Of a stretch of DNA of 29,297 bases, positions 3,900 to 11,018 are shown piece by piece. Made by a program: the position numbers and the translations under genes. The notes under the pieces were generated by a model. That model ran no database searches. It was not told where the DNA came from and saw nothing but the letters and a program-made list of their open reading frames with translations. Location: IMG/VR virus record IMGVR_UViG_3300042397_000834, positions 1 through 29,297 of that record. One strand, written 5' to 3'. The stretch comes from a virus. How positions within the stretch are numbered: position 1 is the first letter of the stretch; each line of letters starts with the position of its first letter.

Positions 3900-4007
3900 A
3901 GGATACATTTTACTTTTTTGACAGGTGTGCTACCATTACACCACTAGCCGGAATCGAAGCCGGTCTCCCTGTTTGGATTATGAGTAAAAGATTGCTGTTA
4001 GTATCCT
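3900..4007 (-). ncRNA. P1/CAGCAA element E1 with permuted tRNA-like (CAU) lacking an acceptor arm
   Basis: Closing helix aggatac (3900-3906) with gtatcct (4001-4007). Read on the minus strand: P1, UAACAGCAA, second helix CUUUUAC/GUAAAAU (3984-3990 with 3907-3913), CUCAUAA (a CAU anticodon-loop sequence), helix ACAGG/CCUGU, a T-arm (TTCGATT loop), then directly a D-arm (GTGTAATGGTAGCAC). No acceptor helix and no CCA. T-arm before D-arm is the reverse of tRNA order, so this is a circularly permuted tRNA-like. Last array element before rpoZ. Confidence 0.7.
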
Positions 4008-4012
4008 ATATT

Positions 4013-4086
4013 TGGATGCGGGTGACAGATTCGAACTGCCGATGCTCCGAGCTTATGAGACTGGAGTGGTGACCCCCCTACCCGCT
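4013..4086 (-). tRNA. tRNA-Met/Ile2 (anticodon CAU)
   Basis: Loop CTCATAA, T-loop TTCGAAT, encoded CCA, discriminator T. Acceptor GCGGGT/ACCCGC pairs over six bases with A1:A72 unpaired. The anticodon stem has one mismatch. Met versus lysidine-modified Ile cannot be decided from sequence. Confidence 0.75.
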
Positions 4087-4143
4087 GTATTCGTTGCCAC
4101 ACTACTTATCCTATTATACACCGTGTGCCATGGTGAATTCTTT

Positions 4144-4218
4144 TGGTGGAGGTTAAGAGAATCGAACTCTTACGAAGACCTTGCAAAGGTCCCAGGCTAC
4201 CATTACATCAAACCCCCA
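4144..4218 (-). tRNA. tRNA-Ala (UGC)
   Basis: Anticodon loop TTTGCAA in a GACC/GGTC stem, acceptor TGGGGGT/ACCTCCA, T-loop TTCGATT, encoded CCA. First of two Ala(UGC) genes in the array. Confidence 0.9.
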
Positions 4219-4219
4219 T

Positions 4220-4372
4220 TTAACTTGCCACTATATGCGGAATGTAGGGAACTGCTCTTGGTCCACCGTACAGTTGTTCAAAAAGTTTTTTAGCCTCTTG
4301 CGGTGTGTCCGCATAGATACGCTTCTTTTCTTCACCCTGCGGTGTCCTAACAGTTGCTTCGTACATTGGCAT
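4220..4372 (-). CDS. Hypothetical protein, 50 aa, inside tRNA array
   Basis: Starts MPMYEATVRTPQGEEKKRIY and ends YIPHIVAS. Ribosome site AGGA is eight bases before the ATG. The stop lies one base beyond the 5' end of tRNA-Ala, so the gene fills the whole gap between tRNA-Ala and tRNA-Pro. The first half (EATVRTPQGEEKKRIYADTP) reads like a small beta-sheet with a helix (QEAKKLFEQLYG), reminiscent of small phage proteins, but no family is recognised. Expressed on the array transcript. Confidence 0.75.
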   Translation of the reverse strand: MPMYEATVRTPQGEEKKRIYADTPQEAKKLFEQLYGGPRAVPYIPHIVAS

Positions 4373-4386
4373 ATAATAATCCTAAT

Positions 4387-4465
4387 TGGTCGGAATGGTG
4401 GGATTCGAACTCACGACCCTCTGCTCCCAAAGCAGATGCGCTAACCAGACTGCGCTACATTCCGA
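4387..4465 (-). tRNA. tRNA-Pro (UGG)
   Basis: Loop TTTGGGA in stem TCTGC/GCAGA, acceptor TCGGAAT/ATTCCGA, encoded CCA. First of two Pro(UGG) genes. Confidence 0.92.
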
Positions 4466-4471
4466 ATAAAC

Positions 4472-4548
4472 TGGTACCTGGTGTCAGACTCGAACTGACA
4501 TCGTTCTCCGTGTAAAGGAGATGCATAACCTCTCTGCGCAACCAGGCA
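4472..4548 (-). tRNA. tRNA-Val (UAC)
   Basis: Loop TTTACAC in stem TCTCC/GGAGA, acceptor TGCCTGG/CCAGGTA, encoded CCA. Confidence 0.92.
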
Positions 4549-4555
4549 AAAAATA

Positions 4556-4629
4556 TGGAGCGGGGTGCGAGAATCGAACTCGCGACTTGAACTTGGAAGG
4601 ATCTCGTTTTACCACTAAACTAACCCCGC
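4556..4629 (-). tRNA. tRNA-Gly (UCC)
   Basis: Loop CTTCCAA, acceptor GCGGGGT/ACCCCGC, discriminator T, encoded CCA. The anticodon stem contains a T:T mismatch. Confidence 0.85.
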
Positions 4630-4641
4630 ATTAAAAAACTT

Positions 4642-4718
4642 TGGTGCCCCAGAGGAGACTCGAACTCCTAAAATTTGGCTTCTAAGACCAACACGTATAC
4701 CAATTCCGTCACCGGGGC
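4642..4718 (-). tRNA. tRNA-Leu (UAG), short variable loop
   Basis: Loop CTTAGAA in stem TTGGT/GCCAA, acceptor GCCCCGG with GU pairing, A73, encoded CCA. The variable region is only five bases (ATTTT) where bacterial tRNA-Leu normally has a long arm. Confidence 0.88.
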
Positions 4719-4722
4719 TTAT

Positions 4723-4798
4723 TGGTTGCAGTGGAGGGAATCGAACCCCCGACCTACAGGTTATGAGCCTGTCCAGATACCGCTTCTAACACACTGCG
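4723..4798 (-). tRNA. tRNA-Met (CAU), initiator-like C1:A72
   Basis: Loop CTCATAA in stem ACAGG/CCTGT. Acceptor CGCAGTG/CACTGCA leaves C1 opposite A72, the hallmark of bacterial initiator tRNA, but the three G:C pairs at the base of the initiator anticodon stem are absent. Initiator identity is therefore uncertain. Encoded CCA. Confidence 0.82.
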
Positions 4799-4809
4799 CC
4801 ATTATTTAT

Positions 4810-4904
4810 CTATCGTGAAACACACTGCCTATTATTCCTTGCGGACTATTTTTATCTGAAACAACCCGGAGCGCGACTCCCAGGCTCAATGTGTTTTACG
4901 ATAG
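4810..4904 (-). ncRNA. AAACACA-family structured RNA X1
   Basis: Fourteen-pair closing helix, interrupted by one G.T position: ctatcgt-g-aaacaca (4810-4824) with tgtgttt-t-acgatag (4890-4904). Inside on the minus strand: a GGGAG/CTCC-type hairpin and a UCC-GCAA-GGA hairpin with a GNRA tetraloop. No T-loop or open reading frame. One of five loci with this outer helix in the array. Confidence 0.55.
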
Positions 4905-5115
4905 TGTCTAGCCACTCCCACCACAGGAGCCCTAGACTGAGCAGTTACTCTGTCCATAACATTTTCTTCTTCTGGAAAGGCTGTTAATCCTCACCCTAGG
5001 CAGTTTCCAGTATCCCTTAAATGGGGACTGTGAGGTCAGGTCCTAGTGTACCCCCTGGTCTATCGTTACAGGGACGCTATTTCGTTACGTAGAAATAGTA
5101 AGACGGGTTTTATTT
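4905..5115 (-). ncRNA. Structured non-coding spacer between tRNA-Met and tRNA-Ile
   Basis: About 210 bases without a convincing gene but with several perfect helices: gtctag/ctagac enclosing ctcc/ggag (4907-4940), ctggaaa/tttccag (about 4972-5010), ccctg/caggg and ctatttc/gaaatag (5078-5101). Probably one or two structured RNAs transcribed with the array; strand is inferred from the neighbours. Confidence 0.4.
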
Positions 5116-10153: not shown

Positions 10154-10215
10154 AGGATGGTTTTTGTCGCTAGACAACCAAAAAGTTTAGCTTTAAAGTT
10201 TGCTGAACCCATCCT
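10154..10215 (-). ncRNA. P1/CAGCAA element E6, small
   Basis: P1 aggatgg (10154-10160) with ccatcct (10209-10215), then GUUCAGCAA. The insert contains a TTGTC-TAGC-GACAA hairpin and a weak AAC-TTTTTG-GTT hairpin; no clean anticodon arm. The last two P1 pairs differ from other copies by compensatory changes (GG/CC). Confidence 0.62.
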
Positions 10216-10220
10216 AAAAC

Positions 10221-10295
10221 TGGTGGAAGCCGAGGGAATCGAACCCTTCTAGACAGTATGCTTGCAAGGCAAACCCGTAACCCATTACTGCCCCC
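10221..10295 (-). tRNA. tRNA-Ala (UGC)
   Basis: Loop CTTGCAA, acceptor GGGGGC pairing with GCTTCC through GU pairs, A73, encoded CCA. Several mismatches in the stems; diverged from the first Ala gene. Confidence 0.82.
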
Positions 10296-10379
10296 ATTAT
10301 AGAAACACATTTAAACAGTCCTTCAACGTTAGTCGCTATCTCCCTTACTATCGGGCGGATCTGTATGTGCTTTTATAAT
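10296..10379 (-). ncRNA. AAACACA-family structured RNA X3
   Basis: Outer helix attata-g-aaacacat (10296-10310) with atgtgctt-t-tataat (10365-10379). Inside on the minus strand: CAG-(A)-TCC/GGA-CTG and a CGC/GCG arm with CCC/GGG. It exactly fills the gap between tRNA-Ala and tRNA-Asn. Confidence 0.5.
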
Positions 10380-10457
10380 GGCTCCGTGTGTGAGGATCGA
10401 ACTCACCTAATCACTGATTAACAGTCAGGTCCTTGCACCATGCTTGGATTTCACGGA
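10379..10457 (-). tRNA. tRNA-Asn (GUU)
   Basis: Loop CTGTTAA in CTGA/TCAG, acceptor TCCGTG/CACGGA plus A:A at pair 7, G73, encoded CCA. Second Asn gene. Confidence 0.88.
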
Positions 10458-10468
10458 ATAGAAATTGT

Positions 10469-10545
10469 TGGTCTCGCATGTAGGACTCGAACCTACGAAG
10501 TCTCCGCCCCAAACGGAGTGGCATAGCCGCTAACCGAATGCGAGA
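10469..10545 (-). tRNA. tRNA-Pro (UGG)
   Basis: Loop TTTGGGG in CTCCG/CGGAG, acceptor TCTCGCA/TGCGAGA, encoded CCA. Confidence 0.92.
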
Positions 10546-10551
10546 TAAAAT

Positions 10552-10625
10552 TGGTCCTCTCGACAAGAATCGAACTTGTAATGGCCGGTTATCAGCCGAC
10601 TGTTATACCATTTAACTACAAGAGG
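10552..10625 (-). tRNA. tRNA-Ile (GAU)
   Basis: Loop CTGATAA in GTCGG/CCGGC, acceptor CCTCTTG/CGAGAGG, A73, encoded CCA. Confidence 0.92.
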
Positions 10626-10630
10626 AATAA

Positions 10631-10722
10631 ACTTATTAGGGGTGACTATCGGGATTTGAACCCGAACTACCAGAGTCACAGTCTAGGTTGCTACCATTAC
10701 AACATAGCCACACCTAATAAGT
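10631..10722 (-). tRNA. tRNA-His (GUG) with 10-bp leader/trailer helix and no encoded CCA
   Basis: tRNA body 10642-10711: loop CTGTGAC in CTAGA/TCTGG, acceptor GTGGCTA/TAGTCAC, T-loop TTCAAAT, discriminator C73 as for His. The 3' side reads CCT instead of CCA. Leader and trailer pair perfectly (acttattagg 10631-10640, cctaataagt 10713-10722), extending the acceptor helix. Confidence 0.85.
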
Positions 10723-10729
10723 CTAACAT

Positions 10730-10803
10730 TGGCACCCGGACTAGGGATCGAACCTAGGCTAACAGAGTCAAAGTCTGTTGTGCTACCATTACACAATCCG
10801 GGA
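10730..10803 (-). tRNA. tRNA-Gln (UUG)
   Basis: Loop CTTTGAC in ACAGA/TCTGT, G73, encoded CCA. Acceptor CCCGGA/TCCGGG with U1:U72 unpaired, in keeping with the weak first pair favoured by GlnRS. Confidence 0.9.
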
Positions 10804-10814
10804 ACAAAATAAAC

Positions 10815-10874
10815 AGGATGTATTTTTACAAGTTGAATTAAAAGTTCAGTGTATAAATTTGCTGTTAACATCCT
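10815..10874 (-). ncRNA. P1/CAGCAA element E7 with a free Lys(UUU) anticodon stem-loop
   Basis: P1 aggatgt (10815-10821) with acatcct (10868-10874), then UAACAGCAA. Insert TACA-C-TGAA-CTTTTAA-TTCA-ACT-TGTA (minus strand): stem with the seven-base tRNA-Lys(UUU) loop. No other tRNA arm. P1 ends in GU/AC pairs, unlike E5 (AC/GU). Confidence 0.7.
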
Positions 10875-10879
10875 AAAAC

Positions 10880-10953
10880 TGGCACTCCCCTAGGGACTCG
10901 AACCCCAACGAACGGTTTTGGAGACCGCTATGCTGCCATTACATCAGAGAAGT
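10880..10953 (-). tRNA. tRNA-Trp (CCA)
   Basis: Loop CTCCAAA in GCGGT/ACCGT, acceptor ACTTCTC/GGGGAGT, G73, encoded CCA. Confidence 0.92.
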
Positions 10954-10963
10954 ATAATAAAAC

Positions 10964-11018
10964 AGGCTTCGCTTTTTGTTTCATTTACAGTGAAATTTAA
11001 ATTTGCTGAAAGAAGCCT
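10964..11018 (-). ncRNA. P1/CAGCAA element E8 with a free Tyr(GUA) anticodon stem-loop
   Basis: P1 aggcttc (10964-10970) with gaagcct (11012-11018), a different helix sequence that still pairs fully, then UUUCAGCAA. Insert TTTCA-CTGTAAA-TGAAA (minus strand): five pairs and exactly the tRNA-Tyr(GUA) loop. No other tRNA arm. Confidence 0.7.

What the first reader, a model, noticed from the sequence alone, without database searches (positions are those of the whole stretch)
3900..11018. A nine-copy RNA family with a shared P1 helix and CAGCAA motif scattered through the tRNA array
Nine loci (3900, 5221, 7121, 7378, 7671, 8582, 10154, 10815, 10964) share AGGAUNN...NNAUCCU plus CAGCAA three or four bases after the 5' strand of the helix. 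The last pairs of the helix vary but stay paired (AC/GU, AG/CU, GG/CC, GU/AC, UUC/GAA), which is covariation. The inserts differ completely: permuted tRNA, ordinary tRNA-like, or a single hairpin. An RNA frame that hosts tRNA pieces in several topologies is not something I know.
Basis: partly seen in the sequence, partly recalled or inferred. Interest (0 to 1): 0.93.

Follow-up and report, generated by a model that had tools for sequence, protein, structure and literature searches.

The report
Phage RNAs that display anticodon arms
Between their tRNA genes, hundreds of mostly uncultured phages encode a previously undescribed family of small RNAs in which one conserved stem holds either a detached tRNA anticodon arm or a circularly permuted tRNA with a sealed, unchargeable end; the best guess is that they are decoys against bacterial defences that cut tRNAs.

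Summary
The frame is an 8-bp end-pairing helix P1 (UAGGAUNN...NNAUCCUG), 3 nt, then CAGCAA, always on the tRNA strand. In 422 IMG/VR loci 734 strict copies occur (scrambled motifs: 1-6); 698 lie near same-strand tRNAs and none near opposite-strand tRNAs only. P1 covaries.

Most short inserts are anticodon stem-loops: the best hairpin has a 7-nt loop in 216/360 (shuffled 23/360), with U33 in 193 and A37 in 190. Lys-UUU and Thr-UGU lead, and 210/234 have U or A at position 36. Many long inserts are circularly permuted tRNAs whose acceptor stem is capped by a loop: ARAGORN of 178 as tRNA when circularised (3 linear, 0 shuffled). Part of these match the tRNA-like module of bacterial Y RNA YrlA, but not its Ro60-binding stem.

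Elements also lie unannotated in cultured phages (Vibrio PhiImVa-1, EniLVp02; Cronobacter GAP32; Stenotrophomonas DLP_6). A scan of 84,980 cellular genomes gave only chance-level hits.

Best explanation (about 50%): non-chargeable decoys or competitive inhibitors of tRNA-targeting defences such as PARIS AriB or Cas13a. Function is untested; the anatomy is solid.

The parts
8581..8638 (-). Frame with Lys-UUU anticodon arm: P1 8638-8631/8588-8581, CAGCAA 8627-8622, arm UUCAA-CUUUUAA-UUGAA 8611-8595
   Evidence: model R1 70.8 bits, E 1.7e-14 (in the training set); fold z -3.5
10814..10875 (-). Frame with Lys-UUU anticodon arm: CAGCAA 10864-10859, arm UGAA-CUUUUAA-UUCA 10848-10834
   Evidence: R1 66.1 bits, E 2.1e-13 (in the training set); fold z -2.7
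10963..11019 (-). Frame with Tyr-GUA anticodon arm, compensated P1 AGGCUUC/GAAGCCU: CAGCAA 11008-11003, arm UUUCA-CUGUAAA-UGAAA 10995-10979
   Evidence: R1 65.8 bits, E 2.5e-13 (in the training set)
10153..10216 (-). Frame with a possible H-type pseudoknot insert (GCUA...UGUC UAGC GACA) around ACUUUUUGGU; CAGCAA 10205-10200
   Evidence: R1 45.5 bits, E 1.5e-8, not in the training set; similar inserts in L034, L073, L079
7377..7491 (-). Frame with permuted tRNA: anticodon arm (CUUGAAA, Ser-UGA) - T arm - acceptor-like stem AGCC[GAAA]GGUU - D arm
   Evidence: sequence and fold; near-identical relatives in L011:1477 and L101:12578
5221..5337 (-). Frame with permuted tRNA: hairpin - T arm - acceptor stem AUUAUCC[UUUU]GGAUGAU - D arm - anticodon-like arm
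   Evidence: fold -41.6 kcal/mol, z -5.5; T arm, capped acceptor and D arm align to YrlA positions 30-81, 21.3 bits
3899..4008 (-). Frame with T arm joined directly to D arm, no acceptor stem; anticodon stem leads into UUUUACU/AGUAAAA and P1
   Evidence: sequence and fold (fold z only -0.45)
7121..7242 (-). tRNA with open acceptor stem and CCA, missed by ARAGORN, carrying the frame as a hairpin (GUUAUCCUG ACA AGGAUACAGUCAGCAA) between D arm and anticodon arm
   Evidence: sequence; CAGCAA 7184-7179
7670..7778 (-). Frame with degenerate, non-permuted tRNA-like insert (T loop UUCGAUU, D-loop-like GUGG)
   Evidence: sequence; alike inserts in L037:12289, L064:8028, L117:2793
4013..11274 (-). tRNA array in which the nine elements lie, probably co-transcribed
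   Evidence: 37 ARAGORN tRNAs, all minus strand

Best explanation
A family of small phage RNAs is probably transcribed and processed with the tRNAs of phage tRNA arrays. Shown by sequence: the ends pair in P1; a conserved CAGCAA, predicted unpaired, follows; the frame presents either an anticodon stem-loop or a permuted, acceptor-capped tRNA that cannot carry CCA. Inferred: the RNAs are stable, abundant and not aminoacylated, and act as decoys or competitive inhibitors that soak up host factors attacking tRNAs at the anticodon arm or tRNA body (anticodon nucleases such as PARIS AriB, PrrC-like enzymes, Cas13a, retron or Septu effectors), sparing the working tRNAs during infection. CAGCAA with P1 would be a folding, protein-binding or stability module.
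For: Anticodon arms: 7-nt loop in 216/360 against 23/360 shuffled, U33 193/216, A37 190/216; anticodons are not base composition (AAA expected 23.6, seen 0; UUU expected 6.1, seen 51). Only the loop and a generic stem are kept. Permuted inserts have capped acceptor stems, 3- to 10-nt loops, and are called tRNA almost only when circularised. Strand and place are tied to tRNA arrays. AriB of PARIS cuts tRNA-Lys(UUU) and Thr(UGU) best, then Asn(GUU) and Thr(CGU) (PMC12409363): this set is 106/234 of displayed arms against 522/4763 of the phages' tRNAs; 27/112 when each arm sequence counts once (p 1e-4). GAP32 shows Asn-GUU and Lys-UUU arms. Cas13a cuts U-rich anticodons and also loops that mimic anticodon stem-loops (PMC11042736). 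[quoted passage not shown]
Against: No expression, binding or infection data. AriB probably also contacts the D loop and other parts of tRNA (PMC12409363), so a bare arm may be a poor AriB decoy. The U36/A36 bias fits tRNA modification enzymes equally well. About a third of short inserts (126/360) have no recognised anticodon arm and some long inserts carry no recognisable T or D arm. No clear enrichment of the same anticodon among tRNAs of the same locus (97/149, shuffled mean 91).
Confidence: 0.5

Rival explanations
1. Sponges or substrates for tRNA-modifying enzymes acting on the anticodon loop: the arms compete for, or are modified by, host enzymes of the t6A37 or ms2i6A37 pathways.
For: 210/234 displayed anticodons have U36 or A36, mostly next to A37-A38, the context of t6A and i6A enzymes (general knowledge), against 55% of the phages' tRNAs.
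Against: A few G36 and C36 arms exist (24/234); the capped tRNAs without a normal anticodon loop fit poorly; no obvious gain for the phage.
Confidence: 0.14
2. Y RNA-like scaffolds: P1 and CAGCAA bind a host or phage protein (Ro60-like or another RNA-binding protein), and the tRNA-like part recruits or gates a nuclease, as YrlA-type RNAs are thought to do.
For: Same arm order and capped acceptor as YrlA; Rfam YrlA 48.9, 36.7 and 30.8 bits on elements in L089, L106 and L043.
Against: The YrlA stem outside the tRNA-like module does not pair in the alignments; no TROVE/Ro60 gene in 51 records; bare anticodon arms are not a Y RNA feature.
Confidence: 0.13
3. Permuted or split pre-tRNAs that are cut and ligated into working tRNAs, the frame acting like an intron or joining helix.
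For: Vibrio phage PhiImVa-1 has what reads as a permuted tRNA with CCA at the 3' half, bridged by P1, and a tRNA with the frame in its anticodon region; window 7121-7242 keeps CCA.
Against: Most permuted copies have the acceptor closed by a short loop with no CCA; bare arms can never give a tRNA.
Confidence: 0.08
4. Ribosome-directed RNAs: displayed anticodon arms bind the decoding site and tune translation of particular codons.
For: Canonical U33 and A37-A38 loops are kept; anticodons favour A- and U-starting codons.
Against: No precedent known to me; would inhibit the phage's own translation.
Confidence: 0.07
5. A selfish or processing hairpin that spreads in tRNA arrays and carries tRNA debris as passengers.
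For: Many copies per array (up to 8), module shuffling, odd topologies.
Against: Anticodon-arm stems and P1 covary, loops keep U33 and A37, scans of cellular genomes give only chance-level hits, strand never flips.
Confidence: 0.08

Closest known systems
Bacterial Y RNA YrlA (Rfam RF02553), tRNA-like module
   Same: T arm, acceptor-like stem closed by a loop, D arm in permuted order, on a stem made by the RNA's ends; several long phage elements align to this part. A bacterial Y RNA structure and tRNA superpose with a circular permutation (PMC11472068).
   Different: Ro60-binding stem not matched, gathering score (69 bits) not reached in any locus tested, no Ro60 gene found; P1 plus CAGCAA instead; two thirds of the frames hold a short insert, mostly a bare anticodon arm.
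Dictyostelium class I RNAs (RF01414)
   Same: About 60 nt, end-pairing stem, conserved 11-nt motif next to its 5' strand, variable interior, 3' end CUGU (PMC7919456); the motif ends in ACAGCAA (recalled); 26-30 bits on single-arm elements.
   Different: Below the gathering score of 41.5; social amoebae; no anticodon arm reported. Convergence or unknown link.
Phage tRNAs that blunt tRNA-cutting defences (T5 and T6 tRNAs against PARIS, retron-Eco7, Septu)
   Same: Same gene neighbourhood and proposed purpose (PMC12409363, PMC11555353, PMC13096335).
   Different: Those are chargeable tRNAs that replace the lost ones; these cannot be charged.
T4 small stable RNAs C and D in the T4 tRNA cluster
   Same: Non-tRNA small RNAs within a phage tRNA cluster; rnaC ends in a T arm.
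   Different: R1 finds no match in T4; no frame.
Circularly permuted tRNA genes of algae and archaea (recalled)
   Same: Reversed order of tRNA halves.
   Different: Those mature to chargeable tRNA; most phage copies have a sealed acceptor.

Membership tests
Bacterial Y RNA (YrlA) | tRNA-like module (T arm, capped acceptor, D arm) | tested here: met
   For a subset of long inserts: L089 48.9 bits, L106 36.7 bits, window 5221 partial 21.3 bits; T before D in 45 of 49
Bacterial Y RNA (YrlA) | Reaches the Rfam gathering score (69 bits) | tested here: not met
   No YrlA among matches listed down to 54 bits in 17 loci; best 48.9
Bacterial Y RNA (YrlA) | Conserved Ro60-binding stem | tested here: not met
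   Many outer pairs of the model are non-standard in the alignments
Bacterial Y RNA (YrlA) | Ro60/Rsr protein present | tested here: inconclusive
   No PF05731 in 51 viral records, but most are fragments and a host could supply it
Dictyostelium class I RNA | Reaches the Rfam gathering score (41.5 bits) | tested here: not met
   Best 29.9 bits
Functional tRNA | Open acceptor stem with CCA | tested here: not met
   Acceptor capped by 3-10-nt loops in the permuted inserts listed; exceptions window 7121-7242 and PhiImVa-1
tRNA anticodon arm | 5-bp stem, 7-nt loop, U33, purine 37 | tested here: met
   216/360 unconstrained best hairpins have 7-nt loops, U33 193/216, A37 190/216
Anticodon-nuclease decoy | Binds or is cut by such a nuclease and protects tRNAs | not testable with these tools
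   Needs biochemistry and infection assays

The most novel reading that the evidence does not exclude
A widespread class of viral RNA decoys: phages print sets of detached anticodon arms and sealed, permuted tRNAs on a common RNA frame, each arm imitating the tRNA targeted by a particular host tRNA-cutting defence, so that the arm repertoire records which defences the phage meets.
Probability: 0.4. Interest if true: 0.95.

Novelty: categorically new. Interest (0 to 1): 0.88.

Why it matters
Phage tRNA arrays are usually read as codon-usage helpers or tRNA replacements. A family of non-chargeable RNAs in the same operons that present anticodon arms points to another layer of tRNA-centred conflict: unannotated, in hundreds of phage contigs, already present in cultured phages, and directly testable. 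It would also give YrlA-type tRNA mimicry a phage counterpart and provide a ready collection of natural anticodon-arm mimics.

Tried and rejected
Ro60 partner: searched for TROVE, none found. Cellular origin: a scan of one genome for each of 84,980 species gave 36 hits, about the number I estimated for chance; none has a tRNA array and most lack a full P1. Copy of the neighbouring tRNA: the tRNA just upstream shares the anticodon in only 3 of 129 cases, so the arms are not local duplications. Matching tRNA in the same array: no clear co-occurrence. Rfam: no family other than tRNA at threshold. A BLAST of 13 elements against 50,697 phage records found only Vibrio relatives of note; a model scan then added GAP32 and DLP_6, with no match in Melnitz-1, phiN3, Phosso, Vibrio 2.275.O, PA5oct, XacN1 or T4. 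My first strand test of the second frame used a pattern that is its own reverse complement and was useless; it was redone with an asymmetric pattern. Literature: no description found in the held library, which lacks most subscription journals and preprints.
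Full report
OBSERVATION. The window is a 29,297-base IMG/VR virus record. Its tRNA array, 4013-11274, lies wholly on the minus strand. On that strand nine places carry AGGAUNN(3 nt)CAGCAA ... NNAUCCUG or a compensated version. The outer pair is nearly always U-G, giving an 8-bp P1. In a first fetch of 120 viral stretches, sites with P1 of at least 7 bp and the motif are mostly inside tRNA arrays, always on the tRNA strand. Controls: 157 same-strand against 7 opposite-strand sites in 61 array loci, true scrambles 2-13. In 422 loci (3.83 Mb): 734 strict frames, five scrambled motifs 1-6; 698 near a same-strand tRNA, none near opposite-strand tRNAs only, 36 without a tRNA nearby. 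These loci were fetched with the motif, so density is biased, but the strand control is not. With the hexamer left free, 407 of 470 sites are CAGCAA, next CAGCAU 20, CUGCAA 9, CUGCAU 5, CCGCAA 4; 0 of 15 on the other strand.

COVARIATION. Over 543 unique frames P1 pairs 4, 5, 7 and 8 vary with compensation: pair 7 is AU 269, GC 162, CG 84, UA 26; pair 8 is CG 266, GC 168, AU 62, UA 43; mutual information reaches 1.6 bits at pairs 7 and 8. P1 pairing was required to enter this set. In the 37-sequence alignment A1, 97.9% of cells pair, against 77.8% shuffled and 29-46% when slid. RNAalifold on its own finds P1. The model R1 built from A1 finds 169 matches in 63 loci.

WHAT THE SHORT INSERTS ARE. 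For 360 unique elements of at most 70 nt I took the best hairpin of the insert without any rule about its loop sequence. The loop has 7 nt in 216; in shuffled inserts 23. In these loops, position 33 is U in 193, position 37 A in 190, position 38 A in 184, position 32 C in 157: the anticodon-loop signature. The earlier set of 81 gave 53 with such an arm against a mean of 4.3 (maximum 10) in 50 shuffles. Anticodons of 234 arms: Lys-UUU 51, Thr-UGU 41, Ser-UGA 17, Ser-GGA 15, Arg-UCU 14, Asn-GUU 13, Tyr-GUA 10, Pro-UGG 9, Thr-GGU 8 and others; position 36 is U or A in 210/234, against 2618/4763 phage tRNAs. They are not base composition: AAA is expected 23.6 times and never seen. Stems change with compensation around the same loop, e.g. 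UUCAA/UUGAA, UUUGA/UCAAA, UUUCA/UGAAA and UUAGA/UCUAA around CUUUUAA. In the window the arms are Lys-UUU (8581 and 10814) and Tyr-GUA (10963).

WHAT THE LONG INSERTS ARE. Of 178 inserts in elements of at least 80 nt, ARAGORN as tRNA when the insert is circularised and its flanks trimmed, 3 when read linearly, 0 when shuffled (earlier 17, 0 and 0 of 44). Where both arms are recognisable, T precedes D in 45 of 49, and the acceptor stem between them is closed by a small loop such as GAAA, GCAA, GUAA or UUCAU. In the window: AGCC[GAAA]GGUU at 7377-7491 and AUUAUCC[UUUU]GGAUGAU at 5221-5337; at 3899-4008 the T arm runs straight into the D arm. At 7121-7242 the chain is opened the other way: the acceptor has its CCA and P1 is closed by ACA. 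The same two-dimensional shape is thus kept with different chain ends, which suggests that the shape matters and aminoacylation does not (inference). A further subclass carries a T-loop-like GUGAGUUUCGAUUUCUCAC and no recognised D arm.

WHERE IT OCCURS. All seven family records longer than 160 kb that were searched, up to 425 kb, have a T4-like Gp23 capsid gene, as has one shorter record's fragment set only in part (one search lists each record); nearest cultured relatives by capsid are Stenotrophomonas DLP_6, Methylophilales Melnitz, Sinorhizobium phages, Vibrio 2.275.O, Pectobacterium CBB and Cronobacter GAP32. A BLAST of elements found unannotated copies in the Vibrio phages PhiImVa-1 and BUCT194 (Schitoviridae), vB_VpaP-MS02, EniLVp02 (Straboviridae) and D479. 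A model scan of whole records adds GAP32 (E 1.6e-5, 2.2e-5, 0.008) and DLP_6 (1.1e-4, 0.005); T4 and six others have none. GAP32 displays Asn-GUU and Lys-UUU arms. A scan of one genome for each of 84,980 cellular species gave 36 hits, none near a tRNA array.

MECHANISM. Shown: frame, arm identity, permutation, capping, strand and place. Inferred: transcription with the array (85 of 132 frames have CCA within 12 nt upstream), stability, lack of charging, decoy role. The decoy reading rests on three points. First, the arms keep what anticodon nucleases read and drop what translation needs. Second, the leading anticodons are the preferred targets of AriB of PARIS, Lys(UUU) and Thr(UGU), then Asn(GUU) (PMC12409363); the set is 45% of arms against 11% of tRNAs, or 24% when each arm sequence counts once. 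[quoted passage not shown] Against it: AriB seems to need more than the arm, the position-36 bias also suits modification enzymes, and nothing is known of expression. I give it 0.5.

COMPARISON WITH WHAT IS KNOWN. YrlA works as the structural precedent for the long inserts, but the Ro60 stem and gathering score were tested and not met, so the family is not filed there. Class I RNAs of Dictyostelium share the plan (end stem, conserved motif next to it, variable middle, CUGU end; PMC7919456) and score 26-30 bits, below the cut-off; I treat this as an unexplained likeness. No Rfam family or paper found here describes frames with detached anticodon arms, hence 'categorically new' for the family as a whole, with the caution that the long-insert subset is close to a known kind and that the literature library is incomplete.

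Noticed in passing
window 4819-4895, 8188-8265, 11377-11436 (minus strand); 68 loci in all: A second frame in the same arrays, AACACAUU...AGUGUGUU, 88 copies on the tRNA strand and none on the other; 13 hold a GGUUCRA T-loop motif and 8 a D-arm-like motif.
   Followed up: partly
window 9577-9800 (minus strand): A larger structured RNA containing T arm, acceptor stem CGGAUC[GGAA]GAUCCG and a D-arm-like piece inside a long outer helix; weak YrlA match of the T arm and cap.
   Followed up: partly
window 5890-6010, 7861-8022: Two further long end-paired structured elements between tRNAs, of unknown kind.
   Followed up: no
L473 4161-4403 (Vibrio phage PhiImVa-1, ON042477.1): Reads as a permuted tRNA with CCA on its 3' half, bridged by P1 and CAGCAA; nested in it is a tRNA with a hairpin-closed frame in its anticodon region, annotated in the record as tRNA-Sup-TTA.
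   Followed up: partly
L043:2345, L051:452, L089:727, L126:2814: The acceptor cap loop holds UUGGUC while GACCA lies just upstream of P1, a possible pseudoknot or pairing with a CCA end.
   Followed up: no
Rfam RF01414 against window 8581 and 10963, L117, L089: Repeated sub-threshold matches of Dictyostelium class I RNA to single-arm frames.
   Followed up: partly
T4 NC_000866 70908-71046 (rnaC): T4 stable RNA C ends in a T arm (CCGGGUUCGAAUCCCGG), so it too may be tRNA-like.
   Followed up: no
window 21255-21794, 23323-24153, 24279-26348, 26953-27819, 13808-15127: Unusual phage cargo: AhpC/TSA peroxiredoxin, fatty acid desaturase, CHASE2 nucleotide cyclase, carbamoyltransferase, DegT aminotransferase.
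   Followed up: no
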